Source: Ensifer adhaerens (GTDB lineage: Bacteria > Pseudomonadota > Alphaproteobacteria > Rhizobiales > Rhizobiaceae). Taken from it: a stretch of 64,000 nucleotides of DNA. The notes beneath the pieces are model-generated. The model ran no database searches and was not told the origin of the DNA. It was given only the letters and a program-made list of their open reading frames with translations. The DNA lies in assembly GCA_900215285.1 (NCBI GenBank), contig OCMG01000003.1:558001-622000 (forward strand), in the 5' to 3' direction. Shown piece after piece: positions 10,916-29,363 of the stretch; positions within the stretch are counted from its first letter, which is position 1; every line of letters begins with the position of its first letter. Position numbers and translations under genes: made by a program.

Positions 10916-13390
10916 TCAGGGAAGCGGCCGCGCGGCCTCGAAGAAGTCCGCCCACGGATCGGATGCCAGATTATCCAGCCGGCCGCGCACGTTGCCGAGG
11001 CTGAAATGCGCCGGTCCGATATCCGGCGTCAGTTCCGACCAGTCCAGCGGCATGGAAATGGCAGCGCCCGGGCGCGCTCGTGTCGAATAGGCGGCAACCG
11101 CCGTGCTGCCCCGTCCGTTGCGAAGATAGTCGATGAAGATGCGACCGTGCCGCTTGGCCTTGGTGGCGACGGCAATGTAGCGCGCTGGGTCATCCTTGGC
11201 CATGTCAGTCGCCAGTCGCTTGGCATAGGCCTTGACCTTTGGCCAACGGGCCTGCGGCTTGAGGGGGATGACGACGTGCAAGCCCTTGCCGCCGGAGGTC
11301 TTGACGAACGCCGCAAGGCCGTCCTTTTCAACGCGATCCTTCAATCCCTGCGCCGCGTCAATGACGGCTGACCATTCAACGTCATCTGCGGGGTCCAGGT
11401 CCATGGTGATCATGTCCGGCTGTTCCCAATTCCGCGTTGTCGTTCCCCAGGGATGGATTTCCAGGCAGCCCGACTGCGCCAGCGCCACAAGGCCATCGAA
11501 ATCGAGAATCCTGAGCGCCGGCTTGCCGCCCTTGTCCTTCGGGTCGATGATCTCGTTGATGCTCTTGTTCATCCCGCGCCATCCGTGTTTCTGGAAGAAA
11601 TGGGGCCCCTGGATGCCGTCCGGGCATCTGACAAGCGCAAGAGGGCGATCGACAACGAAAGGGGCCATGAGCCGCCAGGCTTCAGCGTAATAGTCGACGA
11701 GCCCCTGCTTGGTGACGCCGTCGTCAGGCCAGTAGAGGCGGTCCGGGTGGGTCAGCTTCACCTGTGACTGCGGGGCTTTCGGTCTCGCTTCCACTTTACC
11801 CTCCTTGACGATTTCGCGCGCCGGCTTGTCCTCCCGAATGCCCCGAAAGGCCGCGTGGCGGAGATTACCATCGGCCGACCACGCGCGGAACTCGACCTCC
11901 GCGACCAGTTCGGGCTTCACAAAGACAAGCTGACGGCGAGCCGACGCATCGAGCGCTTCGGCAAAGGGGCTTTTTTCCGTCACAAGCGGCTTCAGGCGAT
12001 CGAAAAGCATTTCCGCGACGTCGCGGCTAAATCCTGTCCCCACACGACCGACGTGACGTAGCGCTTCACCCTCATATACGCCGAGCGCGAGGGACCCGAT
12101 CGCTGTCTTGGAGGTCGAGGACGGAGCATAGCCGCCGATGACAAATTCCTGTCGCTCCGAGCATTTTGACTTGATCCATTGCCCGGTGCGGCCGGAGCGA
12201 TATTTCCCGTCGGCCCGCTTCGAGACGACGCCCTCCAGGCTGAGGCGGCAGGCGTGATCGAGGACCAGCCCGCCGGCCTCGTCGAAATGCGCACTGTAGC
12301 GTATTCGGGGTCCGACATTCTTCAGCAACACTTCGAGCTTCGCCTTGCGATCCTTCAGCGCTGCCGCGCGCAGATCGTGGCCGTTGAGATGGAGAATGTC
12401 GAACGCATAAAAGACGAAGCGGTCGCTTCGCTCCTCGCTCAGATCCTTCTGCAGGGCGGAGAAGTCGGACACCCCGTTTGCCCGCTCCACGACCATCTCG
12501 CCGTCGAGCAGGGCTGCCTCGGCGGGCAAGGCACGAAGGGCCTGAGCAAGATCCACTCCAAACTTCTCTGTCCAGTCGAGCCCGCTGCGGGTTAACAGGG
12601 CGATTTCCCCGTGGTCAAGCCGGACCTGAATCCTGTAACCGTCGAACTTGATCTCATGCAGCCATGCCGCGCCCTTGGGCGGTGCGGCCTTCAGGGTGGC
12701 AAGCTGCGGTTCGACAAAGCCCGGCAAGCGTCCCCGTTTGGCCCCCTTGGGCCAGTTGGTTTCGGTTGCGGATCCCTTGGGAGCCGGCTCTCCGACCGCC
12801 TTGCCGTTGCTCCAGCGCGCGACAGGTGCCTTGGCCATCTCCTCGATCCGCTTCTTCGACTTGACCGAAAGCGGCATCTCTTCGAGCAGTTCATCGCCAT
12901 GATCGGGGCGGGCTGCCTCGTCTTCCCCCTTGATCAACAGCCAGTTGTTTCGCTTCTCGCCGCTGCGCGGCTTCATGCGGACGAGATGCCAGCGTCCGGA
13001 AAGCTTTTCGCCCTCCAGCGAGAATTCGAGATGGCCCTTCTTGAGGCCCTTGTGGGCATCACCGATTGCATGCCAGATCCCGCGATCCCAGAGAATGACG
13101 GCACCGGCGCCATACTGCCCCTTCGGGATTTCGCCTTCGAAATCGCCGTAGGCCAGCGGGTGGTCCTCCACCTCCACCGCCAGCCGCTTGTCTTCCGGAT
13201 CGAGGCTCGGGCCCCGCGTTACGGCCCAGCTTTTCAGGACACCGTCCAGTTCCAGCCGAAAATCGTAATGCAGCCGGCGTGCCGCGTGTTTCTGGATCAC
13301 GAAGCTGGAGCCTCCGGGCTTGGCATCCGTGCCCTCGGGCTCGGGTGTCTTGTCGAAACGGCGGCGGGCATTATAGGTCTGGAGGCTCAT
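10916..13390 (-). CDS. ligD: ATP-dependent DNA ligase D (LigD)
   Basis: Multidomain end-joining enzyme of 824 aa. Order is phosphoesterase, ligase, polymerase: residues about 1-160 hold the 3'-phosphoesterase (RLHYDFRLELDGVLKSWAV, EDHPLAYGDFEGEIPKGQYG), about 220-520 the ligase with nucleophile Lys248 in EIKFDGYRIQ, and about 540-824 the primase-like polymerase with MDLDPADDVEW as metal site and FVKTSGGKGLHVVIPL. All key residues I can check are present. It starts 2 bp after the stop of the second Ku gene on the same strand, so it is the last gene of a topIB-orf-ku-ligD unit. Confidence 0.96.
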   Translation of the reverse strand: MSLQTYNARRRFDKTPEPEGTDAKPGGSSFVIQKHAARRLHYDFRLELDGVLKSWAVTRGPSLDPEDKRLAVEVEDHPLAYGDFEGEIPKGQYGAGAVILWDRGIWHAIGDAHKGLKKGHLEFSLEGEKLSGRWHLVRMKPRSGEKRNNWLLIKGEDEAARPDHGDELLEEMPLSVKSKKRIEEMAKAPVARWSNGKAVGEPAPKGSATETNWPKGAKRGRLPGFVEPQLATLKAAPPKGAAWLHEIKFDGYRIQVRLDHGEIALLTRSGLDWTEKFGVDLAQALRALPAEAALLDGEMVVERANGVSDFSALQKDLSEERSDRFVFYAFDILHLNGHDLRAAALKDRKAKLEVLLKNVGPRIRYSAHFDEAGGLVLDHACRLSLEGVVSKRADGKYRSGRTGQWIKSKCSERQEFVIGGYAPSSTSKTAIGSLALGVYEGEALRHVGRVGTGFSRDVAEMLFDRLKPLVTEKSPFAEALDASARRQLVFVKPELVAEVEFRAWSADGNLRHAAFRGIREDKPAREIVKEGKVEARPKAPQSQVKLTHPDRLYWPDDGVTKQGLVDYYAEAWRLMAPFVVDRPLALVRCPDGIQGPHFFQKHGWRGMNKSINEIIDPKDKGGKPALRILDFDGLVALAQSGCLEIHPWGTTTRNWEQPDMITMDLDPADDVEWSAVIDAAQGLKDRVEKDGLAAFVKTSGGKGLHVVIPLKPQARWPKVKAYAKRLATDMAKDDPARYIAVATKAKRHGRIFIDYLRNGRGSTAVAAYSTRARPGAAISMPLDWSELTPDIGPAHFSLGNVRGRLDNLASDPWADFFEAARPLP

Positions 13391-13392
13391 GA

Positions 13393-14220
13393 TCAGCTGG
13401 CCTTTCTGGTCTTGCCGCGGGAGTGCCGGTTGCGTTCAGCACGATGGTCGCTGTCTTTCGCGCTCAGGCGCAGCGCCTCGCGAAGATCGATCACCTTGTC
13501 CTCGGCTCGTGGTTTTGACGCCGGTAGCTCGCGTCCTTCCATCTTGGCGCGGACGAGGTCCATCAGCGCGGCTTTGTAGCGGTCATGATAGTCTGCCGGG
13601 TCGAAGCTGCTCATCTTCTTCCTGATCAGATGGCCGGCCAGATCCAGAAGCTCCTCATCGTATTCGGGTTCGGAGAGCCCGCGAAAGGCGTTTCGGGCGG
13701 AACGGACCTCGTAGTCGTAGCTGAGTGTCGAGGCGAGGACGGTCCCTTCGTGAGCGCGCACGATCAGCGCCCGGTTGCGCCGGAAGAGCACGGCTTCGGC
13801 GAAGGCGACGGTGGAGGTCCGCTCAAACGCCTCGCCCAGGGCGCGAAACGCCTCTTCGTCTGCTCTCTCTGCCGGCGCAAGGAAATAGGGCTTGTCGAAA
13901 TAGAGCTTGTCGACCGCCGCGCAGGGCAGGAAGTGCTTGATGGCGATGGTCTTGTCGCTGTGCGGTACGAGGCTGGTCAGAACATCGGGTTCCATGAGGA
14001 CATAGGTGCCGTCATCCAGTTCGTAACCGCGCACCTGCGCATCGCGCTCGACGGGGTCTTCCGTTTCGCTGTCAACGAAGCGGCGCTCGACGCGGTTGCC
14101 GGTCTTGCGGTTGACGATGTGGAAGGAAACCTTTTCGGCAGACGACAGCGCGGAATAAAGTCCCACGCCACATTCGATGCCGAGGCCCTTCAAGCGGCCT
14201 TTCCACAAAGCCCGGGGCAT
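13393..14220 (-). CDS. ku: Ku protein, second copy
   Basis: Ku of 275 aa translated just ahead of ligD. Family signature runs from LWKGRLKGLGIECGVGLYSA and KVSFHIVNRKTGNRVERRFV through IAIKHFLPCAAVDKLYFDKPYFLAP to the acidic/basic tail SKDSDHRAERNRHSRGK-like end (AKDSDHRAERNRHSRGKTRK), which is Lys/Arg rich and may bind DNA. Its ATG overlaps the stop codon of the upstream 96-residue gene (TAATG). Two different Ku proteins around one LigD resemble the Ku3/Ku4 pair of Sinorhizobium meliloti, which is thought to work as a heterodimer; that comparison is from memory. Confidence 0.94.
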   Translation of the reverse strand: MPRALWKGRLKGLGIECGVGLYSALSSAEKVSFHIVNRKTGNRVERRFVDSETEDPVERDAQVRGYELDDGTYVLMEPDVLTSLVPHSDKTIAIKHFLPCAAVDKLYFDKPYFLAPAERADEEAFRALGEAFERTSTVAFAEAVLFRRNRALIVRAHEGTVLASTLSYDYEVRSARNAFRGLSEPEYDEELLDLAGHLIRKKMSSFDPADYHDRYKAALMDLVRAKMEGRELPASKPRAEDKVIDLREALRLSAKDSDHRAERNRHSRGKTRKAS

Positions 14221-17780: not shown

Positions 17781-17879
17781 CGGACCTGCCCGCGCGACAC
17801 CATTCAGACGTGCAAAGCCAGCCACCCGCTAACCCTTGTCAGGAGTCGGTCATCCAATCTTCATAAGCGTGACAAATCG

Positions 17880-17897
17880 CTGTCAATGGATTGTCAC
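17880..17897 (+). promoter_or_regulatory. Pho box (PhoB site) before the phosphonate monoester hydrolase operon
   Basis: CTGTCAATGGATTGTCAC holds two 7-bp half sites, CTGTCAA and TTGTCAC, separated by 4 bp, as in the PhoB consensus (CTGTCAT-N4-CTGTCAT). It ends 55 bp before the ATG at 17953 and a weak -10-like TTCATAT follows about 10 bp later. Supports induction by phosphate starvation. Confidence 0.65.
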
Positions 17898-17952
17898 CCA
17901 GTCTGCTTCATATGGCCTGCGAAACGCGGGCCTTCCTGACAAAGAGCAGACC

Positions 17953-19509
17953 ATGAACCACCCCAATGTCCTCCTCATCGTCGTCGACCAGTGGCGCGGC
18001 GATATCCTGCCGGCCCTGGGCACGGCACATCTGAAGACGCCCAATATCGATCGGCTCTGCCGCGAGGGCGTGACATTCCGCAATCATGTCACGACGACTG
18101 TTCCGTGCGGTCCGGCCCGGGCCAGCCTGCTGACGGGACTGTACCAGATGAACCACCGGGCGGTGCAGAACACCATTCCGCTGGATTCACGGCACACCAA
18201 TCTGGCGCATGCGCTACGGTCGGTCGGGTACGATGCGGCAATGATCGGTTACGCGACTTCTGTTCCGGATCCGCGCCGCACCTCTCCCAATGATCCGCGT
18301 TTTGCCCTTCTCGGCGACATGATGGACGGCTTCCGGCCCGTCGGCGCTTTCGAGCCGGAGAAGGAGGGCTATTTCGGCTGGCTTGCGCATCACGGCTACA
18401 AGGTTCCGGAAAATCGCGACGATGTATGGCTCCCCGAAGGCGAGGACGCCGTTCCCGGTGCGACCGACCGTCCCGCCCGCGTGCCTGCCGAGCTCTCGGA
18501 CACCGCCTATTTTACAGACGCGGCGCTGCGCTATCTCAAAGGGGTCGGCAAGAGGCCGTTCTTTCTGCATCTCGGCTACTGGCGGCCGCATCCGCCCTTC
18601 GTCGCTTCCGCGCCTTATCATGCCATGTACCGGCCCGAGGACATGACGGGGCCGGTGCGCGCCGCAACGCCGGAAATCGAGGCGCAACAGCATCCCTTGC
18701 TCGACTTCTATCTGCGCAAGACCGCCAACTCGGGATTTTTCCAAGGCGCTGAAGGCTTTGCCGCAGAACTGAGCGAAGACGAAATCAGGCAGATGCGCGC
18801 GACCTATTTCGGCATGATGACCGAAATAGACGACTGCCTCGGAAAAGTGTTCGCCGAACTCGACGAGACCGGCAAGTGGGATGAAACGCTGATCATCTTC
18901 ACGTCCGATCACGGCGAGCAGCTGGGCGACCACCACTTGCTCGGCAAGGTCGGCTATTTCGACGAAAGTTTCCGCGTGCCTCTCATCGTGAAGGATCCGA
19001 GACGCAAAGACACCGCCGGACGCATCGAAGACGCGTTTACAGAAAGTATCGACGTCATGCCGACGATTCTCGACTGGCTCGGCGGGGAAATTTCCAGGGC
19101 CTGCGATGGCCGGTCACTTCTCCCGTTGATCGGCGGCACCAAGCCTGCCGACTGGCGCACCGAACTGCACTACGAGTTCGATTTCCGCGATGTCTATTAT
19201 TCCGAGCCCGAGAAGGAACTCGGGGTTGGCATGGACGAAGCGAGCCTTTGCGTCATTCAGGATGAGTCGTACAAATATGTCCACTTCGCGACCCTGCCGC
19301 CGCTCCTCTTCGATCTGAAGGCAGATCCCCATCAGTTCACCAATCTGGCCGAGGATCCGGCCTTTGCCGGCGTCGTCAAGGATTATGCGCAGAAGGCCTT
19401 GTCCTGGCGTCTGATCCACGCCGACCGGACGCTCACCGCTTATCGCAGCACGCCCCGCGGTCTCGAAAACCGCGCCTCCCAATCTTCCTCCCAAACGTCG
19501 AAGGACTGA
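17953..19509 (+). CDS. Phosphonate monoester hydrolase / phosphodiesterase (alkaline phosphatase superfamily)
   Basis: 518 aa, close to the full length of the Rhizobium leguminosarum PMH (514 aa) and matching it, as I remember that sequence, over nearly every stretch (for example LTGLYQMNHRAVQNT, SDHGEQLGDHHLLGKVGY, DWLGGEISRACDGRSLLP). These enzymes hydrolyse phosphonate monoesters and phosphodiesters, with weaker sulfatase activity. The nucleophile is a formylglycine made from Cys52 in TVPCGPARASLL (CxPxR motif), and metal ligands are in VVDQWRGD and SDHGEQ. A maturase must modify Cys52; none is in the window. There is no signal peptide, so the substrate must be imported. Start at MNHPNVL is 55 bp past the Pho box. 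First gene of a six-gene operon. Confidence 0.9.
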   Translation: MNHPNVLLIVVDQWRGDILPALGTAHLKTPNIDRLCREGVTFRNHVTTTVPCGPARASLLTGLYQMNHRAVQNTIPLDSRHTNLAHALRSVGYDAAMIGYATSVPDPRRTSPNDPRFALLGDMMDGFRPVGAFEPEKEGYFGWLAHHGYKVPENRDDVWLPEGEDAVPGATDRPARVPAELSDTAYFTDAALRYLKGVGKRPFFLHLGYWRPHPPFVASAPYHAMYRPEDMTGPVRAATPEIEAQQHPLLDFYLRKTANSGFFQGAEGFAAELSEDEIRQMRATYFGMMTEIDDCLGKVFAELDETGKWDETLIIFTSDHGEQLGDHHLLGKVGYFDESFRVPLIVKDPRRKDTAGRIEDAFTESIDVMPTILDWLGGEISRACDGRSLLPLIGGTKPADWRTELHYEFDFRDVYYSEPEKELGVGMDEASLCVIQDESYKYVHFATLPPLLFDLKADPHQFTNLAEDPAFAGVVKDYAQKALSWRLIHADRTLTAYRSTPRGLENRASQSSSQTSKD

Positions 19510-19512
19510 TTC

Positions 19513-21135
19513 ATGTTCACAACGTCAAGACGCGGCTTCATCCTGCTCACCGGCAGCGCACTCGCCATGCCGCATCTGGCTTTCTCGCAGTCTGCTGCTC
19601 GGCCGGAAATCACGATTGCTGTCCAAAAGCTCGCAACCTCTAACACGCTCGATCCGTTGACCGAGCAGTCGAATGTCGGCATGCGTGTCATGAATTCCTA
19701 TATGGAATGCCTGATCGAGACCAATCTTCTCGGCAAGCTGGAGCCCAAGCCGGCGCTGGCGACAAGCTGGAAGCGCATCGACGACAAGACCGTCGAGCTG
19801 GAATTGCGCAAGGGCGTGAAATTCCACAACGGCGATGAAATGACCGCCGAGGATGTCGTCTTCACCTTTAGCGCCGCACGGATGATGGGCGACACCACAC
19901 CCGCCGGCTGGGACAAGACCATGATGGTCGACCAGAAGAACGTCGTTCAGCGCAGCAAGGAGTTGCCGCCGCAAGTGCCTGCCGTTTCGCGTCGTCTCTG
20001 GCCCGCGCTGGTCAAGGTCGAAGCCACCGGCACGCATACCGTGCGTTTCGTCAATGCCACGCCCGATGTGACGATGGAAGGCCGCATCATGGCGCTTGGC
20101 TCCCAGATCATCAGCCGGCGCGCCTTTGACGAGGCCCCGAGCTGGCTCGATTTCGCCCGCAAGCCGATCGGAACCGGTCCCTACAAGATTGCAAAATTCA
20201 CGCCCGACACCGAACTTGTCCTCGTCAGCCACGATGACTATTGGGGTGGTTTGCCGCCGCTGAAGCAGATCCGCTTCGTGCAGGTTCCGGAGGCCGCCCA
20301 GCGCGTCAATGGCGTTCGCGCCGGTCAGTACGACATGGCCTGCGACCTGACCCCTGATCAGTTTGCCTCGGTAACCAGCGACCCCAAGCTCGAAGTCGTC
20401 GGCGGCATCATCAACAATATCCGTGTCACCTGCTTCGACATCTTCAATCCCACCCTGAAGGACGTGCGCGTACGTCAGGCCATGCTGCATTCCATCGACC
20501 GACAGATGATCGTCGATCAACTCTGGATGGGCAAGACCATCGTTCCCAAGGGGGACCAGTTCGAATGGTATGGCGACATGTATCTGGGTGACTGGAGCGC
20601 GCCCGAATACGACCCGAACAAGGCCAGGCAATTGCTCAAGGACGCCGGCTACAAGGGCGATCCCATTCCGTACCGCCTGCTCAACGACTACTACACGCTG
20701 CAGGTCAACAATGCGCAGGTGATGGTCGAGATGTGGAAGCAGGTCGGCCTCAATGTCGAGATCGAGATGAAGGAAAACTGGTCCCAGATCTGGGATCCGG
20801 CGGGCAAGCGTGGCGTCCACGACTGGTCGAGCGGCGGCAGTTTCCCGGATCCCGTGGCGACCCAGCCGAACCAGTGGGGTCCGCAGGGTCAGCAGGTTCA
20901 GACCGGCGAATACAAGAATGACGAAGTGACGACGCTTTGCGGCGTGCTCCAGACATCGACCGATCGCGCGGCGCGAAAGAAGGCCTTCCAGCGGATGCTC
21001 CAGATTCTCGAACGCGAAGATCCCGCCTACGGCGTGATCAACCAGAACGCCACGTTCACCGCCAAGGCGAAGTCCGCAAAATGGAAGGTGTCGCCGTCCT
21101 TCGCCATGGACTTCCGTCCAGGCAATTGGGGGTAG
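19513..21135 (+). CDS. ABC transporter substrate-binding protein, peptide/nickel (family 5) type
   Basis: Periplasmic binding protein of 540 aa. The leader MFTTSRRGFILLTGSALAMP has a twin-arginine look (SRRGF), suggesting Tat export. SBP family 5 features: LEPKPALATSWKRIDDKTVELELRKGVKFHNGDEMTAEDVVFTF, GTGPYKI, DVRVRQAMLHSIDRQMIVDQLW. It starts 3 bp after the hydrolase stop. Family 5 proteins bind peptides, nickel, opines and sugar phosphodiesters such as agrocinopine; because it is locked between a phosphodiesterase and its transporter, the ligand is probably the ester that the hydrolase cleaves. Confidence 0.9.
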   Translation: MFTTSRRGFILLTGSALAMPHLAFSQSAARPEITIAVQKLATSNTLDPLTEQSNVGMRVMNSYMECLIETNLLGKLEPKPALATSWKRIDDKTVELELRKGVKFHNGDEMTAEDVVFTFSAARMMGDTTPAGWDKTMMVDQKNVVQRSKELPPQVPAVSRRLWPALVKVEATGTHTVRFVNATPDVTMEGRIMALGSQIISRRAFDEAPSWLDFARKPIGTGPYKIAKFTPDTELVLVSHDDYWGGLPPLKQIRFVQVPEAAQRVNGVRAGQYDMACDLTPDQFASVTSDPKLEVVGGIINNIRVTCFDIFNPTLKDVRVRQAMLHSIDRQMIVDQLWMGKTIVPKGDQFEWYGDMYLGDWSAPEYDPNKARQLLKDAGYKGDPIPYRLLNDYYTLQVNNAQVMVEMWKQVGLNVEIEMKENWSQIWDPAGKRGVHDWSSGGSFPDPVATQPNQWGPQGQQVQTGEYKNDEVTTLCGVLQTSTDRAARKKAFQRMLQILEREDPAYGVINQNATFTAKAKSAKWKVSPSFAMDFRPGNWG

Positions 21136-21137
21136 TG

Positions 21138-22161
<1,024 letters not shown>

Positions 22162-22175
<14 letters not shown>

Positions 22176-23145
22176 GTTGCGCGGTATCGGACGAGACTAT
22201 GCCGGTCGCAGCCGATTGTTCGGCAGGCATGCGCCCGTCAGCGCCGTTCTCGACGTTTCTCTGGAGCTGGAGCGGGGTCGGATCCTGGGTCTGGTGGGCG
22301 AGAGCGGCTGCGGCAAGTCGACGACGGGTCGTATCGCGCTTGGCCTCGACAAGCCGACGAGAGGGGAAGTCGTTTTCGAAGGAAGGCCGATGCCGCCGGC
22401 GGGCTCGCCATCCTGGAAGGCCTCGCGCCGACAGATGCAGTACATTTTCCAGGACCCGCTCGGTGCCCTCGACAAACGGATGAGGATCATCGACCAGATT
22501 GCCGAGCCGCTCCATATCCATGGCATAGGCGATCCGGACAGCCGCAGGGAGACGGCCGCGCAATTGCTGCGTGACGTTGGTCTTCAGCCTCACATGGGCG
22601 ACGTGTATCCGCTGCAATTGTCGGGCGGTCAGCGCCAGCGCGTCGTGATTGCGCGTGCGCTGGCCATGAAGCCGGAGCTTCTCGTTTGCGACGAGCCCGT
22701 CTCCGCGCTCGATGTTTCCATCCAGGCGCAGGTCATCGGTATCCTGACCAACCTGCAGAAAAGGCTTGGTCTGGCGATGATCTTCATCAGCCATGACCTG
22801 AAGCTTGTCGGTACGATCTCGGATGAGGTCGCCGTCATGTATCTCGGGCAGATCGTCGAGCGAGGCAGCCCCCAGGAGGTCTTCTCGGTGCCCGCCCACC
22901 CCTATACGCGCGTGCTGCTCGCCTCCATCCCGCAGCCGTTGCGCAGCAGTGCGCGGCCCGTGCTGCAGGGCGAGCCCCCGGACCCCTCGCAAAGGCCGGC
23001 CGGTTGCGCCTTCCATCCCCGCTGTCCGGTTGCGGTCGAGACCTGCCGCAGCAAGGCTCCGGTTCTGCAGGCCGTCCACGGGACGCATCAGGCGGCGTGC
23101 CATCTGGCGAGCGTCAGTTCCAATTTTGCAAGGCAGATGGCGTGA
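22162..23145 (+). CDS. ABC transporter ATP-binding protein, DppF/OppF-like
   Basis: 327 aa second ATPase of the same importer, overlapping the previous gene by 14 bp. Walker A GESGCGKST, signature LSGGQRQRVVIARALA, Walker B LLVCDEPVSALD, and the C-terminal RPAGCAFHPRCPVAVETC motif. It pairs with the DppD-like ATPase to drive the two permeases. Its stop shares a base with the next start codon (TGATG). Confidence 0.92.
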
Positions 23146-24068
23146 TGCTGTTCTTTTTTCTCCGTCGCCTCGCGCGGGCATTCCTGACGATCCTGATCGT
23201 CGTCGCTTGTGCCTTTGTCGCGCTCAGAACGACAAGCGACCCGTCCGTCGTCATCCTTGGGCCGGATGCGCCGCCGGAGGCCGTGGCGGCGTTTCGTGCC
23301 GCTTGGGGGCTCGACAAGCCGTTGATCCAGCAGTTTGCCTATTATCTCTGGGGCGTCGTGCACGGCAATTTCGGCATATCGATGCTCGACGGCCAGAAGG
23401 TCCTGCCCATGGTGCTATCGCGCGTTTCGGTCACGCTGGAAATCATGGCGCCTGCGCTTCTACTCGGCGTACTGGCCGGCGTTTCATCGGGTATCTATGC
23501 TGCCCTGAACCGGGGCAAGACGCTGGATCAGCTGGTCATGCTGGCTGCGGTTTCCGGTTTTGCCGTGCCAGGCTTCGTTCTCGGTCTCGTGCTGGTTCTG
23601 ATCTTTGCGGTCCAGCTGCATTGGCTTCCCGCCGGCGGCAATCGCGAATGGACCGGTGCCATTCTTCCGGTCATTACGCTTGCGACGGGGTGGGCGGCCA
23701 TTCTTGCCCGCTTCACCCGCTCGGCGATGATCGAAGTTCTCGATCAACCTTACATTCTGACCGGGTCGGCGAAAGGCCTTCTGTGGCGCGCCGTGGTGAT
23801 GCGGCATGCTCTGCCTAACGCGGCCATTCCTGTGGTGACGATGATCGGTTTCATGGTCGGCGGCCTTCTGGCCGGTGCCGTCGTCACGGAAAGCGTCTTC
23901 AGCTGGCCGGGTCTCGGGCAACTCATCGTGACCGCAGTCACGTCTCGTGACGTTTCGGTGGTCCAATGCGTCCTGGTTCTGGTCGCGACGACGATGGTGA
24001 TCTCAAACATGACGGTCGACCTGCTCTATGGCTGGCTCGACCCGCGTATCAGAGGAGCGTCCCGATGA
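23145..24068 (+). CDS. ABC transporter permease, DppB-like
   Basis: 307 aa, with N-terminal helix MLFFFLRRLARAFLTILIVV, the periplasmic loop of DppB proteins (LGLDKPLIQQFAYYLWGVVHGNFGISM-like), and ALPNAAIPVVTMIGF..GAVVTESVFSWPGLGQLIVTAV near the C-terminus, the region that contacts the ATPases and lines the pore. Start chosen by overlap with the ATPase stop; the longer frame back to 23004 runs within that gene. Fourth component of the hydrolase-linked importer. Confidence 0.92.
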   Translation: MLFFFLRRLARAFLTILIVVACAFVALRTTSDPSVVILGPDAPPEAVAAFRAAWGLDKPLIQQFAYYLWGVVHGNFGISMLDGQKVLPMVLSRVSVTLEIMAPALLLGVLAGVSSGIYAALNRGKTLDQLVMLAAVSGFAVPGFVLGLVLVLIFAVQLHWLPAGGNREWTGAILPVITLATGWAAILARFTRSAMIEVLDQPYILTGSAKGLLWRAVVMRHALPNAAIPVVTMIGFMVGGLLAGAVVTESVFSWPGLGQLIVTAVTSRDVSVVQCVLVLVATTMVISNMTVDLLYGWLDPRIRGASR

Positions 24069-24931
24069 CCTTGGACATTCAGGCGGCGGCCGTTGAAGAC
24101 ACGCGCGTCTGGCGATTGCCGAAGGTTTCGTTCATCGTCGGCTGCGCGATCGGTTGGGCGGTGCTGATGATCCTGATCGCCGTTTTCTCCGAGCAGATTC
24201 GCCCCTACACGATCACGGCCATGGATCTTGGCGCGCGCGCGAAGCCCCCGGTGTTCCTAGGCGGCGATCTCCACCATATTCTCGGCACGGATCAGCTTGG
24301 CCGCGACGTCTTCTCGCGCCTGATCGTTTCGATCCGCGTCAGCCTGACCATCGCCGTGTCCGCCACCATTCTGGGCGTCCTGTTCGGCGCCGCGATGGGG
24401 ATTGCAGCCGCCCATTTCGGCGGAATCATCGAGCAGATCGTTCTCATTCTCATCGACGTTCAGGCGGCTCTGCCCTTCATCATCCTGGCCCTGTCCGCGC
24501 TCGCCTTCTTCGGGAATTCCCAGATCCTGCTGATCTGCCTGCTGGCGCTCTATGGTTGGGAGCGGCACGCGCGGATCATCCGAGGGCTCGCGCTCGCCGC
24601 CAAGGAGCAGGGGTACATGCTGGCGGTCAAACAGCTCGGCGCGGGATCAGGCCGTCTTTACCTGCGACACCTTCTTCCCAACATCGCGGCCACGATGGTT
24701 GTGTCGGCAACGCTCGCCTTCCCGGAAGTCATTCTTGCGAGCAGCGGGCTGTCATTTCTCGGACTTGGCATCCAGCCACCCAACACCGACCTCGGCAACA
24801 TGGTCGGCTACGGACGCAGTTATCTGGAGACCGCGCCCTGGATTCCCTTGGCACCCTCGCTGGTCATCGTGCTGACCACCCTTTCGATCAGCACGATCGG
24901 GGACTGGCTGCGCGACAAGCTCGGCACCTGA
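24065..24931 (+). CDS. ABC transporter permease, DppC-like
   Basis: 288 aa. It carries the DppC pattern HHILGTDQLGRDVFSRLIVSIRVSLTIAV, RHLLPNIAATMVVSATLAFPEVILASSGLSFLGLGIQPP and GNMVGYGRSYLETAPW. The ATG overlaps the previous stop (ATGA). It is the last gene of the operon; the gap to the iron-uptake genes is 174 bp and contains a separate promoter region, so the operon ends here. Confidence 0.92.
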   Translation: MTLDIQAAAVEDTRVWRLPKVSFIVGCAIGWAVLMILIAVFSEQIRPYTITAMDLGARAKPPVFLGGDLHHILGTDQLGRDVFSRLIVSIRVSLTIAVSATILGVLFGAAMGIAAAHFGGIIEQIVLILIDVQAALPFIILALSALAFFGNSQILLICLLALYGWERHARIIRGLALAAKEQGYMLAVKQLGAGSGRLYLRHLLPNIAATMVVSATLAFPEVILASSGLSFLGLGIQPPNTDLGNMVGYGRSYLETAPWIPLAPSLVIVLTTLSISTIGDWLRDKLGT

Positions 24932-25064: not shown

Positions 25065-25105
25065 TATTTGTTGCCGCATCCCATCCACAGCGGTATGACG
25101 CTGAC

Positions 25106-25948
25106 ATGCTTGCACCATTTCTCATCATGTTCCGCGAGGGCGTCGAAGCGGCGTTGATCGTCGGTATCATCGCCAGCTATCTCAAGCAGACCGGACGCGG
25201 CGTCTGGATGCCCGTCGTCTGGATCGGTATACTGCTGGCCATTGCGCTCTCGCTTTTCGTCGGTGCGGGCTTGCAGATCGTCAGCGCCGAGTTTCCGCAG
25301 AAAATGCAGGAGCTGTTCGAGGCGGTGATCGGCCTTGTCGCCGTCGTCGTGCTCACCTCGATGGTGTTCTGGATGCGCAAGGCCGCCCGCTCGATCAAGG
25401 CGGAGCTGCATCACTCCATCGATGAGGCGCTGGCATCCCATTCGGGCGGTTTCGGGCTGGCGGCGATGGCCTTTCTCGCCGTCGTGCGCGAGGGTTTGGA
25501 ATCGGTCTTCTTTCTTCTGGCGACCTTCCAGCAATCCGGCAGTGCGCTGGCCCCGCTCGGTGCCCTTCTTGGTGTTCTTCTCGCCGTTCTCGTGGGCTAT
25601 GGCATTTACAGGGGCGGCTTGAAGCTCAATCTTCGCCGCTTTTTCCGCTGGACCGGCGTCTTCATCCTGATCGTAGCCGCCGGCATTCTGGCCAATGCAG
25701 TCAAGGCCCTGCACGAGGCGGGCCTCTGGAACCACTTCCAGACCGTCGTCTTCGATTTCAGCGCCCGGCTTCCGCTCGATAGCCCGCTCGGCTCGGTTCT
25801 CGGCGGCATTCTCGGCTATATCGACGCGCCGACGATCAGCGAGATCACGGTGTATGTCGTCTTCCTCGCCGTCTCGCTGTTCCTGTTCCTGGCGCCGCAT
25901 GCCCCGGGAGAGGACGCCAAGGCCTCTCATTCTGCCCGCAAAACCTGA
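25106..25948 (+). CDS. efeU: Iron permease, FTR1/EfeU family
   Basis: 280 aa inner-membrane protein with two REGxE motifs that bind iron in the membrane: FREGVEAALIVG (Glu at residues 11 and 14) and VVREGLESVFFLLATF in the middle. About seven hydrophobic helices follow the FTR1 plan. Start is ATG 25106 (MLAPFLIMFREGVEA), because the first REGxE helix is always at the very N-terminus; the open frame to 24983 would place an unrelated tail in front. First gene of efeU-efeO-efeB plus a second EfeO-like gene, the ferrous/ferric uptake system used at low pH and low iron. Confidence 0.93.
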   Translation: MLAPFLIMFREGVEAALIVGIIASYLKQTGRGVWMPVVWIGILLAIALSLFVGAGLQIVSAEFPQKMQELFEAVIGLVAVVVLTSMVFWMRKAARSIKAELHHSIDEALASHSGGFGLAAMAFLAVVREGLESVFFLLATFQQSGSALAPLGALLGVLLAVLVGYGIYRGGLKLNLRRFFRWTGVFILIVAAGILANAVKALHEAGLWNHFQTVVFDFSARLPLDSPLGSVLGGILGYIDAPTISEITVYVVFLAVSLFLFLAPHAPGEDAKASHSARKT

Positions 25949-25962
25949 AAAGATCGAATGCG

Positions 25963-27153
25963 ATGAATGCAACGCCCCCCAAGGATCTTCTCCCGCGCAA
26001 GCTCGTGACAGCCGGGATCGTGTTGTCCGGCATCCTCGTGCTGGCTGCGGGCGCCGCGTTCTACTACGCCTCGCGCTATTCCCAGGCAGAACACAAGGCC
26101 ACGGCAGATGGAGCGGTGACGGTGACCATTGCCGGCAAGAGCTGCGAGCCGAACGCGTTGACCGTCCCGGCCGGACGCACCGTCTTCCGGATCGTCAACA
26201 AGTCTGACCGCGCGGTCGAATGGGAAATCCTTGATGGCGTCATGGTGCTGGAGGAGCGGGAGAATATCGCCCCGGGCTTCACGCAAAGCCTGACGGCATC
26301 GCTGGAGCCTGGCGATTACCAGATCACCTGCGGCCTCCTGTCGAACCCGCGCGGGTCGCTCCATGTTACGCCCGCGACGGGAGGCGCAAAGTCAGCCGCC
26401 CAGCCCTCGATGAAAGCCTTTATCGGCGCGATGGCGGAATACAAGGTCTATCTCGCTCGCGAAACGGACGGCTTCGTCACGGCCGTGAACGATCTGGCCG
26501 CTGCCATCAAGGCCGGCGATCCGGCCAGGGCCCGAGCGCTTTATGAGCCGGCGCGCGTCGCCTATGCGCATCTCCTGCCGATCGCCGGTCAGATTTCCGA
26601 TCTCGACAGCGCCATCGACGCCCGCGCCGACTATTTCGAGAAGAAGGAGCAGGACCCCGCCTTTGGCGGCCTGCACCGCATCGAATACGGGTTGTTTGCC
26701 CAGAACAGCCTCGATGGTCTCGCGCCCGTCGCCGAGAAGCTCGCAGCCGATGCCCAGACCCTTGGAAACCGCATCCACGATCTGCGAATCGCTCCCGCGC
26801 AGATGATCGGGGGCGCGGCGGCCGCGATGGATCGCTTCGCCACCGCAGGCTCGGGGCTCGACGAAGACCGCTACGCCCACACCGATCTGGCCTCTCTGCA
26901 GGCATCGTTGGACGGCGTGCAGAAGATCACCGATCTGATTGCTCCCGTCGCCGCCAAGACGCATTCCGCCCTGATCGAGCAAATCGGCAGGGACATCGTG
27001 ACGCTGCAGACGTCGCTCGACACATACCGCCATACGGACGGCTATGTCTCCTATTCAACCCTGACCGAAGACGACAAGTCCGACCTGAAGAAGCAGGCCG
27101 CAGCGCTTGCCGCCGATCTCGGCAAGCTTCTTGAAACCTTGAGGTTAAGCTGA
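25963..27153 (+). CDS. efeO: EfeO: cupredoxin plus imelysin (M75) domain periplasmic iron-binding protein
   Basis: 396 aa. An uncleaved or cleavable N-terminal helix (LVTAGIVLSGILVLAAGAAFYY) is followed by a cupredoxin-like domain (residues about 45-125: VTVTIAGKSCEPNALTVPAG to YQITCGLLSNPRGSLHV) and an M75/imelysin domain (about 145-390) with the hallmark HRIEYGLF metal-site motif and EDRYAHTDLASLQ. EfeO takes iron in the periplasm and hands it to EfeU. It starts 14 bp after efeU and its stop overlaps the efeB start. Confidence 0.93.
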   Translation: MNATPPKDLLPRKLVTAGIVLSGILVLAAGAAFYYASRYSQAEHKATADGAVTVTIAGKSCEPNALTVPAGRTVFRIVNKSDRAVEWEILDGVMVLEERENIAPGFTQSLTASLEPGDYQITCGLLSNPRGSLHVTPATGGAKSAAQPSMKAFIGAMAEYKVYLARETDGFVTAVNDLAAAIKAGDPARARALYEPARVAYAHLLPIAGQISDLDSAIDARADYFEKKEQDPAFGGLHRIEYGLFAQNSLDGLAPVAEKLAADAQTLGNRIHDLRIAPAQMIGGAAAAMDRFATAGSGLDEDRYAHTDLASLQASLDGVQKITDLIAPVAAKTHSALIEQIGRDIVTLQTSLDTYRHTDGYVSYSTLTEDDKSDLKKQAAALAADLGKLLETLRLS

Positions 27154-28475
27154 TGACAAACCAGAAAAACACGAAAGATGATGAAAGCCTCGCATCGCCC
27201 GCACGCCGACGTCTGCTGATAGGTGCGGGCGTGGGGGCCGCCGGCGTGATCGCCAGCGCAACGGGCGCAGCCGCCGCCGAGACCATGACGCCGAGTGCGG
27301 TCACGAATGCGCCGGAAAGCGACCGACTGGGCGAGAGCCAGCCCTTCCACGGCCTGCATCAGACCGGCGTCGTGACACCGCGTCCCGCAGCGGGCCTCGT
27401 CGTCGCCTTCGATGTGCTGGCACAGAATCGCGCCGATCTCGAGCGGCTTTTCCGCACGCTGACGGACCGTGCCGCGTTCCTGATGAAGGGCGGCCCCGTT
27501 CAGCAGCTTGATCCGAAATTCCCGCCTGCCGATTCCGGGATTCTCGGGCCTGTCGTCACGCCGGACAATCTGACGATCACCGTCTCCGTCGGCGACAGCC
27601 TGTTCGACGGCCGCTTCGGCCTGACCAGCGCAAAGCCGAAACGCCTTCAGGTCATGAAGGACTTTCCCAATGATGCGCTTCAGCACGAGCTTTGCCACGG
27701 CGATATCCTGATCCAGTTCTGCTCGAACACGCCCGACACGAACATTCACGCACTGCGCGACATCATCAAGAACATGCCGGACTTGATGATGGTGCGCTGG
27801 AAACAGGAAGGCACCGTGCCGGTCCAGCCGCCGCATTCGGAAAGGGCGAAGGAAAGCGCGCGCAATTTCCTCGGCTTCCGCGATGGCAGCGCCAATCCGA
27901 ATTCGGCCGATCCGGCATTGATGGACAAGATCGTGTGGGTGCAACCAGGCGGTGATGAATCCGACTGGGCCTCGCATGGCAGCTACCAAGCCGTGCGCAT
28001 CATCCGCAATTTCGTCGAGCGATGGGATCGTACGCCCCTCCAGGAGCAGCAGACGATCTTCGGTCGGCAAAAGGCAAGCGGGGCGCCGATGGACGGCAAG
28101 GTCGAAACCGATATTCCCAATTACGCCGCCGACCCGGACGGCAAGATCACGCCGCTGACTTCCCATATCCGCCTTGCCAATCCGCGCGACAAGGAGGCCG
28201 AAGCCCATCTCATCCTGCGCCGGCCGTTCAACTATTCCAACGGCGTCAACAAGGCGGGCCAGCTGGAGATGGGCCTTCTCTTCATCGCCTATCAGGCCGA
28301 TCTCGAAAAAGGGTTCATCCATGTTCAGAACAGGCTGAACGGCGAGCCGCTGGAGGAATATCTCAAACCCATTGGCGGCGGTTATTTCTTCGTTCTGCCG
28401 GGTGTCAGGGACAGCCAGGATTTCTTCGGGCGCAGCCTGCTTGAAGCCACCGGGCCAGTGAATGTGCGCGGCTGA
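27153..28475 (+). CDS. efeB: EfeB: deferrochelatase/dye-decolourising (DyP-type) heme peroxidase, Tat-exported
   Basis: 440 aa. The Tat signal is ARRRLLIGAGVGAAGVIASATGAAAA. DyP features are the GxxDG motif in NFLGFRDGSANP, whose Asp is catalytic, and the C-terminal GQLEMGLLFIAYQADLEKGFIHVQNRL segment. EfeB oxidises Fe2+ or acts on heme with peroxide in the periplasm and supplies Fe3+ to EfeO/EfeU. Its ATG overlaps the efeO stop (TGATG), so the three core genes are coupled. Confidence 0.94.
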   Translation: MTNQKNTKDDESLASPARRRLLIGAGVGAAGVIASATGAAAAETMTPSAVTNAPESDRLGESQPFHGLHQTGVVTPRPAAGLVVAFDVLAQNRADLERLFRTLTDRAAFLMKGGPVQQLDPKFPPADSGILGPVVTPDNLTITVSVGDSLFDGRFGLTSAKPKRLQVMKDFPNDALQHELCHGDILIQFCSNTPDTNIHALRDIIKNMPDLMMVRWKQEGTVPVQPPHSERAKESARNFLGFRDGSANPNSADPALMDKIVWVQPGGDESDWASHGSYQAVRIIRNFVERWDRTPLQEQQTIFGRQKASGAPMDGKVETDIPNYAADPDGKITPLTSHIRLANPRDKEAEAHLILRRPFNYSNGVNKAGQLEMGLLFIAYQADLEKGFIHVQNRLNGEPLEEYLKPIGGGYFFVLPGVRDSQDFFGRSLLEATGPVNVRG

Positions 28476-28535
28476 ATGGCGTTTTTCAGGCCCCACTGTC
28501 CCAACTTCAAACCGTTCCAAGCAAGGAAAAGCTAC

Positions 28536-29363
28536 ATGATACGTCGTACGTCACTTCTGTCCGCCGCCTCCGCCATCGTCATTCTCGCGAGCACGGGCCT
28601 GGCTCAGGCCAAGGTCGCTCCCGAAGATCTCGTTCAGCCGATCGCCGACTACAAGATCTATGTCGAGAAGAACCTCGACAAGCTTGTCAAGGATACCAAG
28701 GCTTTTACCGATGCGGTCAAGGCAGGTGATCTTGAGAAGGCCAAGAAGCTTTATGCGCCGACCCGTGTGACCTATGAGACGATCGAGCCGGTTGCCGAAC
28801 TCTTTTCCGACCTCGACGCCGCCATCGACTCGCGCGCCGACGACCACGAGCAAAAGGAAAAGTCGGCCGACTTCATCGGCTTCCATCGCATCGAATACGG
28901 GCTGTTCCATGAGAATTCGGCCAAGGACCTCGGGCCCCTTGCCGACAAGCTCTATGCGGATGTCACGGAATTGCAAAAGCGCGTGAACGGGCTGACCTTC
29001 CCGCCGGAAAAGGTGGTCGGCGGTGCCGCAGCCCTGATCGAAGAAGTCGCCGCAACCAAGATCACGGGTGAGGAAGATCGCTACAGCCACACCGATCTCT
29101 ATGACTTCCAGGGTAATGTCGACGGCGCCAAGAAGATTGTCGATCTGCTGACGCCGCAGATCAAGCAGGAGGATCCGGCGCTCTTGAAGAAGATCGACGA
29201 GAACTTCGCGACCGTCGACGGCATCCTCGCCAAGTACAGGACGAAGGATGGTTTCGAAACCTATGACAAGCTGACCGACGCGGACCGGAAGGCCCTTGCC
29301 GGGCCGGTCACGACACTGGCCGAAGACCTGTCGAAGCTTCGCGGCACGCTCGGACTGAACTAG
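28536..29363 (+). CDS. EfeO/EfeM-like imelysin protein without a cupredoxin domain
   Basis: 275 aa: a signal peptide ([23 protein letters not shown]), then an M75 domain beginning at about residue 30 that repeats the layout of the EfeO M75 domain ([45 protein letters not shown] end). This short type is known in other bacteria as EfeM. The start is at ATG 28536 with AAGGAAA before it. It lies 60 bp after efeB and is probably part of the same transcript, giving the operon two different iron-binding M75 proteins. Confidence 0.88.

What the first reader, a model, noticed from the sequence alone, without database searches (positions are those of the whole stretch)
17880..24931. Pho-box operon joining a phosphonate monoester hydrolase to its own peptide-class importer
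An 18-bp PhoB-like site (two 7-bp half sites, 4-bp gap) precedes a tightly packed six-gene operon. It encodes a formylglycine-type phosphonate monoester hydrolase/phosphodiesterase with no export signal, a Tat-type family 5 binding protein, two ATPases and two permeases. The natural substrate of this hydrolase class is not established. The context predicts a phosphorus ester that is imported whole and cleaved inside under phosphate starvation. The layout parallels the agrocinopine (acc) system of Agrobacterium Ti plasmids, where a family 5 importer takes up a sugar phosphodiester, but with an unrelated hydrolase.
Basis: partly seen in the sequence, partly recalled or inferred. Interest (0 to 1): 0.82.

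Follow-up and report, generated by a model that had tools for sequence, protein, structure and literature searches.

The report
Phosphate-starvation phosphodiester import-and-cleave operon
These six genes look like a kit that a soil bacterium switches on when phosphate is short, to carry a phosphorus ester into the cell whole and cut it there, and the importer turns out to be a relative of the one plant-tumour bacteria use to feed on agrocinopine.

Summary
A PhoB-type site (17880-17897) precedes a compact six-gene operon: a formylglycine-type PehA (phosphonate monoester hydrolase/phosphodiesterase) with no export signal seen, a Tat-type family-5 binding protein, two ATPases and two permeases. 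I find kinship: the binding protein's nearest solved relative, by sequence and by fold of a predicted model, is AccA. The four AccA side chains reported to hold the phosphate (N54, Y375, Y376, S419) are all present in 69 of 69 binding proteins from pehA loci and in 0 of 40 other family-5 proteins. Sugar-specific contacts are mostly changed, so the ligand is probably not an agrocinopine. PehA plus importer recurs across Alphaproteobacteria, and so does the Pho-type site (17 of 34 independent upstream regions). Relatives use other P-ester hydrolases instead or as well (GDPD, NPP-type, calcineurin-like). Best reading: a phosphate-starvation module that imports a phosphodiester (less likely a phosphonate ester) and cleaves it inside; acc is a specialised cousin. 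The substrate is unproven and there are no expression or binding data. It is a new variant of a known kind that gives the orphan PehA/PMH enzymes a testable natural role.

The parts
17880..17897 (+). PhoB-type site CTGTCAATGGATTGTCAC
   Evidence: similar sites upstream of pehA in relatives
17953..19509 (+). pehA: formylglycine-type phosphonate monoester hydrolase/phosphodiesterase, 518 aa, no export signal seen
   Evidence: NF045661 964.7 bits, cut-off 900; 2vqr 8e-263; CGPAR at Cys52
19513..21135 (+). family-5 solute-binding protein of the AccA clade, Tat-type leader
   Evidence: PF00496; AccA 4ra1 8e-76, next family 1e-29; phosphate-contact residues N54, Y393, Y394, S439
21138..22175 (+). 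ABC importer ATPase (OppD/DppD type)
   Evidence: PF00005 + PF08352
22162..23145 (+). ABC importer ATPase (OppF/DppF type)
   Evidence: PF00005 + PF08352
23145..24068 (+). ABC importer permease (OppB/DppB type)
   Evidence: PF00528 + PF19300
24065..24931 (+). ABC importer permease (OppC/DppC type)
   Evidence: PF00528

Best explanation
This is a Pho-regulon scavenging operon. When phosphate falls, PhoB binds 17880-17897 and turns on all six genes. The Tat-exported binding protein captures a phosphorus ester in the periplasm, gripping the phosphate with the side chains AccA uses (N54, Y393, Y394, S439, with N302 nearby). The ABC importer moves the ester in whole. Cytoplasmic PehA, with Cys52 turned into formylglycine by an FGE-family protein encoded elsewhere in the genome, hydrolyses it to an alcohol plus a phosphomonoester (or a phosphonate), which cellular phosphatases (or C-P lyase) finish. 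The likeliest ligand class is a phosphate diester with a hydroxyl beside the ester, such as a glycerophospho or sugar phosphodiester other than agrocinopine. SHOWN: site, genes, family assignments, conserved synteny, residue conservation, FGE- and PhoB-family genes in the genome. INFERRED: PhoB binding, induction, ligand, cleavage of that ligand by PehA.
For: Site: only 8 cores in the genome; others lie by ugpB and phnF/phnH. Recurrence: <=2 mismatches within 200 bp in 17 of 34 independent upstream regions of pehA with a nearby SBP (the window's is one of the 34), peak at the 6-bp gap (17 against 1-9 for gaps of 2-13), permuted half-sites mean 2.3 of 34; random 200-bp windows 87 of 3080; upstreams of other family-5 SBPs 2 of 40. 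Synteny: SBP directly downstream of pehA in 46 of the 80 best loci; in 289 class-wide genomes pehA (>=60%) in 9, SBP (>=50%) in 9, shared 8 (Fisher 7e-14; cut-offs set after seeing the gap in identities). Importer: AccA nearest by sequence and fold (ranks 1-11). Full N-Y-Y-S set in 69 of 69 SBPs from 46 pehA loci, 19 of 21 class-wide clade members (one of them identical over its last 400 residues to one of the 69), 10 of 15 plasmid sequences (AccA itself among them), 0 of 40 other family-5 SBPs. P-ester hydrolase within 7 kb in 12 of 19 clade loci, 0 of 40 controls. GDPD-linked SBPs of R. etli and R. tumorigenes carry the same L390/Q454/F530 letters and fall inside the PehA-linked clade, so a ligand both enzymes can cut is likely. 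FGE family (233 bits) and PhoB (342.7 bits, cut-off 296.2) in the genome. The acc operon is itself activated by phosphate limitation (review PMC4086400 citing Kim 2008; passage read); its accR has a core one mismatch off, starting 44 bp before the start codon.
Against: In 31 of 80 pehA loci no AccA-clade importer was found in the stretch held, mostly Reyranella-type, so PehA probably can work without it; several of these contigs are short. 17 of 34 independent upstreams have 3 or more mismatches, and the opposite strand of the same 34 gave 8 with <=2, more than random windows, so part of the signal is not orientation-specific. pehA loci without an adjacent SBP had such a site in 5 of 34. The hydrolase reference set was partly drawn from clade neighbours. 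Five of 15 plasmid sequences and 2 of 21 class members lack the full residue set, although most of these sit beside P-ester hydrolases or phnF: the four-residue grip is not needed for the pairing. In one search, 7 of 19 clade loci had no such hydrolase; three of these (L151-L153) have a calcineurin-like gene, the neighbours of the other four (L136, L138, L141, L146) were examined only in part. The pocket loop around S439 is modelled with pLDDT under 50. No expression, binding or enzyme data.
Confidence: 0.68

Rival explanations
1. The operon imports a phosphonate monoester (for example a sugar or glycerol ester of a phosphonate); PehA frees the phosphonate for C-P lyase.
For: The enzyme class is reported to act on phosphonate monoesters and phosphodiesters (PMC5649143 passage). 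The genome has phnF and phnH with the same Pho-type site. In Mesorhizobium AR07 an AccA-clade importer with an exact Pho-type core sits beside phnGHIJ.
Against: Close relatives use GDPD, which is not expected to cut phosphonate esters, with the same pocket letters. C-P lyase is not linked to pehA here; PhnJ was found in 0 of 80 pehA loci and PhnF in 1 (L034). The AR07 binding protein has T in place of N54.
Confidence: 0.2
2. The importer is an ordinary peptide importer, and pehA is next to it by accident.
For: Family-5 importers are mostly peptide or nickel transporters (recalled), and many automatic names in the listing say so.
Against: Conserved synteny across genera, nearest kin AccA rather than DppA/OppA, phosphate-contact residues absent as a set from 40 of 40 other family-5 SBPs.
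Confidence: 0.04
3. The operon serves sulfate esters, since PehA belongs to the sulfatase superfamily.
For: PF00884 match and catalytic promiscuity in the superfamily (PMC5870055 passages).
Against: Pho-type site, PehA model above cut-off while arylsulfatase and choline-sulfatase models stay below theirs, AccA-like phosphate contacts, partner enzymes that are P-ester hydrolases.
Confidence: 0.03
4. It is an opine-like system that takes up an agrocinopine-type sugar-2-phosphate diester.
For: Importer homologous to AccA; phosphate residues kept.
Against: Sugar contacts changed: E510->F530, E434->Q454, M372->L390, W178->L195. No match in the window to the accR-, accF- or accG-type proteins of pTiC58 at 1e-5.
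Confidence: 0.08

Closest known systems
acc operon of Agrobacterium Ti plasmids (AccA importer, AccF phosphodiesterase)
   Same: Homologous family-5 importer with the same phosphate-holding residues; cytoplasmic phosphodiesterase in the operon; phosphate control.
   Different: Hydrolase is formylglycine-type PehA instead of GDPD-type AccF; no accR- or accG-type gene in the window; sugar-contact residues changed.
RlPMH (pRL90232, R. johnstonii 3841) and BcPMH (PehA of strain PG2982)
   Same: About 72% identity to the 3841 enzyme; active-site letters agree. RlPMH is encoded in the same operon type, and relatives 97-98% identical to a 206-residue stretch of BcPMH are too.
   Different: The published work on these enzymes treats the enzyme alone (recalled; papers not held); the operon, importer and phosphate control are the addition here.
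UgpBAEC/UgpQ glycerophosphodiester uptake (recalled)
   Same: Pho-controlled import and cleavage of a phosphodiester; ugpB has a similar site in this genome.
   Different: Different ABC importer family and different hydrolase.
XanT-XanP xanthosan use in Xanthomonas (PMC12807533, passages read)
   Same: Uptake of an intact sugar phosphodiester and cleavage by a phosphodiesterase; its authors also compare it with agrocinopine.
   Different: TonB-dependent transporter and 2H phosphoesterase, other protein families.

Membership tests
PehA / PMH | Equivalog model above cut-off | tested here: met
   NF045661 964.7 bits against 900
PehA / PMH | Formylglycine motif CxPxR and catalytic residues | tested here: met
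   D12, C52, R56, Y100, T102, H213, D319, H320, K332 present, matching RlPMH by the alignment; which residues are catalytic is recalled. In the printed 2vqr and 2w8s chains the Cys position is not Cys
PehA / PMH | Hydrolysis of phosphodiesters and phosphonate monoesters | not testable with these tools
   No assay
AccA-type binding proteins | Nearest solved kin is AccA | tested here: met
   8e-76 against 1e-29 for the next family; ranks 1-11 by fold
AccA-type binding proteins | Phosphate-contact residues N54, Y375, Y376, S419 | tested here: met
   N54, Y393, Y394, S439
AccA-type binding proteins | Pyranose-contact residues E510, E434, M372, W178 | tested here: not met
   F530, Q454, L390, L195
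AccA-type binding proteins | Binds pyranose-2-phosphate | not testable with these tools
   No ligand assay
acc operon | AccF-type GDPD, AccG-type phosphatase, AccR-type regulator | tested here: not met
   tblastn of the three pTiC58 proteins to the window: no match at 1e-5
Pho regulon member | PhoB-type site upstream, recurring in relatives | tested here: met
   weaker or absent in half of the independent relatives
Pho regulon member | Induction by low phosphate through PhoB | not testable with these tools
   No expression data

The most novel reading that the evidence does not exclude
AccA-type importers are a broad class of phosphate-starvation phosphodiester (and phosphonate-ester) importers in Alphaproteobacteria, most of them marked by an N-Y-Y-S phosphate grip. 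Each is coupled to an interchangeable cytoplasmic hydrolase of at least four kinds (PehA, GDPD, NPP-type, calcineurin-like). The natural job of PehA/PMH enzymes is to cut what these importers bring in, and the crown-gall acc opine system was recruited from this scavenging class.
Probability: 0.5. Interest if true: 0.75.

Novelty: new variant of a known kind. Interest (0 to 1): 0.62.

Why it matters
PehA/PMH enzymes are a well-known case of catalytic promiscuity, but their natural substrate is, to my knowledge, not established. Tying them to one importer with a readable phosphate grip turns that into a ligand screen of a single binding protein. It also suggests where the agrocinopine opine system came from, and points to a class of dissolved organic phosphorus (intact diesters) that soil bacteria may take up whole rather than cleave outside the cell.

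Tried and rejected
Ordinary peptide importer: rejected by kinship and residues. Sulfate-ester role: disfavoured. Agrocinopine itself: disfavoured by the changed sugar contacts. The idea that the other 'alkaline phosphatase family' partners are also PehA was rejected: the five checked have no CxPxR (two have a T- or S-type variant somewhere), none matched PehA at 1e-5 in blastp, and all five match PF01663 well above cut-off. Naive longest-ORF calling in GC-rich loci gave shadow ORFs and was replaced by homology-anchored ORFs.

Limits and dropped rows. One search kept the best 80 of 303 relatives, many from close species. Two of 71 SBP ORFs under 500 aa were dropped. One search used 76 of the 80 loci plus the window; four with truncated or short upstreams were left out. 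In one search two loci with truncated pehA (L081, L083) were scanned at a wrong place; both count among the 34 without adjacent SBP, with 3 mismatches. The 40 controls were picked by hand from the listed rows (a capped list, strongest first; 11 of its 12 genomes), so they lean towards strong family-5 matches. Searches scored at most five candidates a genome. The calcineurin-like genes of L151-L153 were found after the count and are not in its 12 of 19; with them it would be 15 of 19, and the same query gave no match at 1e-5 in the 40 control loci.

Literature: searches (titles and abstract starts of the rows listed, capped lists) showed no paper linking a PMH to an importer; subscription papers are mostly not held. 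R. leguminosarum rhizosphere transcriptomes (PMC3333776, passages) do not name pRL9022x or pRL9023x genes in the main text.

Full report
WHAT IS THERE. The window holds, from 17953 to 24931 on the + strand, six tightly spaced genes: pehA, a family-5 solute-binding protein (SBP), two ATPases and two permeases. Two joints are gaps of 3 and 2 nt and three are overlaps of 14, 1 and 4 nt, which argues for co-expression. The 18-bp site CTGTCAATGGATTGTCAC at 17880-17897 ends 55 bp before the pehA ATG. A longer ORF in the pehA frame starts with TTG at 17836, but relatives begin close to the 17953 ATG.

PHO SITE. In the whole genome the core TGTCA-N6-TGTCA occurs 8 times, against 2 for the pattern read backwards. 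Besides this one, sites lie in front of ugpB (566.7 bits, cut-off 411), between phnF and the phnH side, and beside a DUF47 gene followed by a PHO4-family transporter gene, the last in the opposite orientation. The other four have no clear phosphorus gene, though one precedes a protein with a sub-threshold match to a phosphonate-associated membrane family. Among the best 80 pehA loci from named genomes, those with the SBP directly downstream had a site with at most 2 mismatches within 300 bp in 21 of 46 cases, the others in 5 of 34, and random windows in 4.3%. After merging similar upstream regions, 17 of 34 independent ones with a nearby SBP had such a site within 200 bp (random 200-bp windows 2.8%); among gaps of 2 to 13 bp the 6-bp gap stands out (17 against 1-9), and permuted half-sites average 2.3 of 34, this mean including the shifted GTCAT reading of the same repeat (21). 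The opposite strand of the same regions gave 8 of 34. Forty other family-5 SBPs gave 2 of 40. Half of the independent regions have only weaker sites, so phosphate control may not be universal.

HYDROLASE. PehA is an equivalog-level member and aligns over its length with RlPMH (2vqr) and BcPMH (2w8s). Cys52 lies in CGPAR, and the genome encodes an FGE-family protein (233 bits). The R. johnstonii 3841 gene on pRL9 lies in the same gene order. A 206-residue stretch of BcPMH is 97-98% identical to PehA of six Ochrobactrum/Brucella-clade loci that carry the same operon. So RlPMH, and close kin of BcPMH, belong to this operon type.

IMPORTER. The SBP's best solved relative is AccA (8e-76; next family 1e-29), 162 of 466 aligned residues identical. 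A predicted model (mean pLDDT 75.7) has AccA at Foldseek ranks 1-11. El Sahili et al. 2015 (PMC4526662; passages, abstract and sections 11 and 15 read) report that Asn54 and Ser419 contact both sugar and phosphate and that Tyr375 and Tyr376 hold phosphate oxygens. My mapping reproduces the residue letters of the paper at the positions checked except its Glu504, which reads Trp in the chain. The four residues are N54, S439, Y393 and Y394 here. All four are present in 69 of 69 SBPs from 46 pehA loci, 19 of 21 SBPs of the clade found in a class-wide sample of 289 genomes, 10 of 15 plasmid sequences (AccA included) and 0 of 40 other family-5 SBPs. The sugar contacts E510, E434, M372 and W178 are F530, Q454, L390 and L195 here; position 530 is F in 62 of 69 and position 454 is Q in 55 of 69.

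CONSERVATION AND PARTNERS. An AccA-clade SBP was found in 49 of 80 pehA loci, directly downstream in 46; 20 loci carry two or three. In the 289 class-wide genomes pehA (at least 60% identity) was found in 9 and the SBP (at least 50%) in 9, with 8 shared; in 6 of these 8 the two lie on one contig within 5 kb. Relatives of the importer sit beside GDPD (acc of pTiC58, R. tumorigenes, R. etli, Devosia, pAt2), beside NPP-type enzymes, PF01663 (Nitratireductor, Pelagibacterium, S. garamanticum, Mesorhizobium AR07 next to phnGHIJ, Bradyrhizobium 172 next to a PEP-mutase-family gene), or beside calcineurin-like enzymes (Pelagibacterium, L151-L153). Two plasmid relatives (Marinibacterium, Paracoccus) showed no such hydrolase. 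Some operons hold PehA plus GDPD (L137, L140, L143), and nine pehA loci with an SBP also hold an NPP-type gene. Such hydrolases lie within 7 kb in 12 of 19 clade loci and 0 of 40 controls. In the tree, GDPD-only, PehA-only and mixed systems are interleaved within one 40-row clade (100/100), with AccA outside it but inside the larger 64-row clade; the controls are long branches, so the deepest split is not secure.

MECHANISM. The simplest account is phosphate-starvation uptake of an intact P-ester by an AccA-type importer and its hydrolysis by PehA in the cytoplasm. A diester is favoured because GDPD-linked importers share the pocket letters. The end products and the phosphatase that finishes the job are not visible in the operon.

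KNOWN OR NEW. Each part is known: PehA/PMH, AccA-type importers, Pho control, and phosphate control of acc (PMC4086400 passage). The ten literature searches listed in Tried and rejected showed no paper joining PMH to an importer. The addition is the joined module, its spread, the residue signature and the exchange of hydrolases.

Noticed in passing
L018, L019, L020, L021, L022, L025 pehA: A 206-residue stretch of BcPMH (2w8s; strain PG2982, named Burkholderia caryophylli) is 97-98% identical to PehA of Ochrobactrum/Brucella-clade genomes: the strain may be misnamed or the gene transferred.
   Followed up: partly
L128, L129, L134, L135: AccA-clade importers lie beside asparagine-synthetase genes, in L128 and L129 also GHMP-kinase and NTP-transferase genes, in L128 a CDP-alcohol phosphotransferase gene, as if a phosphodiester compound were made and taken back up; L129 also has an autoinducer-binding protein and TraM.
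   Followed up: no
L131, core starting 44 bp before the accR-position gene (6134): The DeoR-type gene before accA of pTiC58 is preceded by CTGTCACCAAACTTTCAT, one mismatch from the Pho core.
   Followed up: partly
e.g. L048, L054, L055, L059, L060, L063, L068 upstream of pehA: Many Reyranella-type pehA genes have a TCGTCACGATCTTGAAAC-like stretch 77-99 bp upstream but no AccA-clade importer nearby.
   Followed up: no
20 loci, e.g. L015, L024, L033: Two or three SBP paralogs lie by one importer, suggesting a range of ligands.
   Followed up: partly
window 25103-29363: EfeU, EfeO, EfeB and a second EfeO-like gene (iron uptake) directly follow the operon.
   Followed up: no
window 10916-14220: Ku and DNA ligase D (non-homologous end joining) lie upstream on the minus strand.
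   Followed up: no
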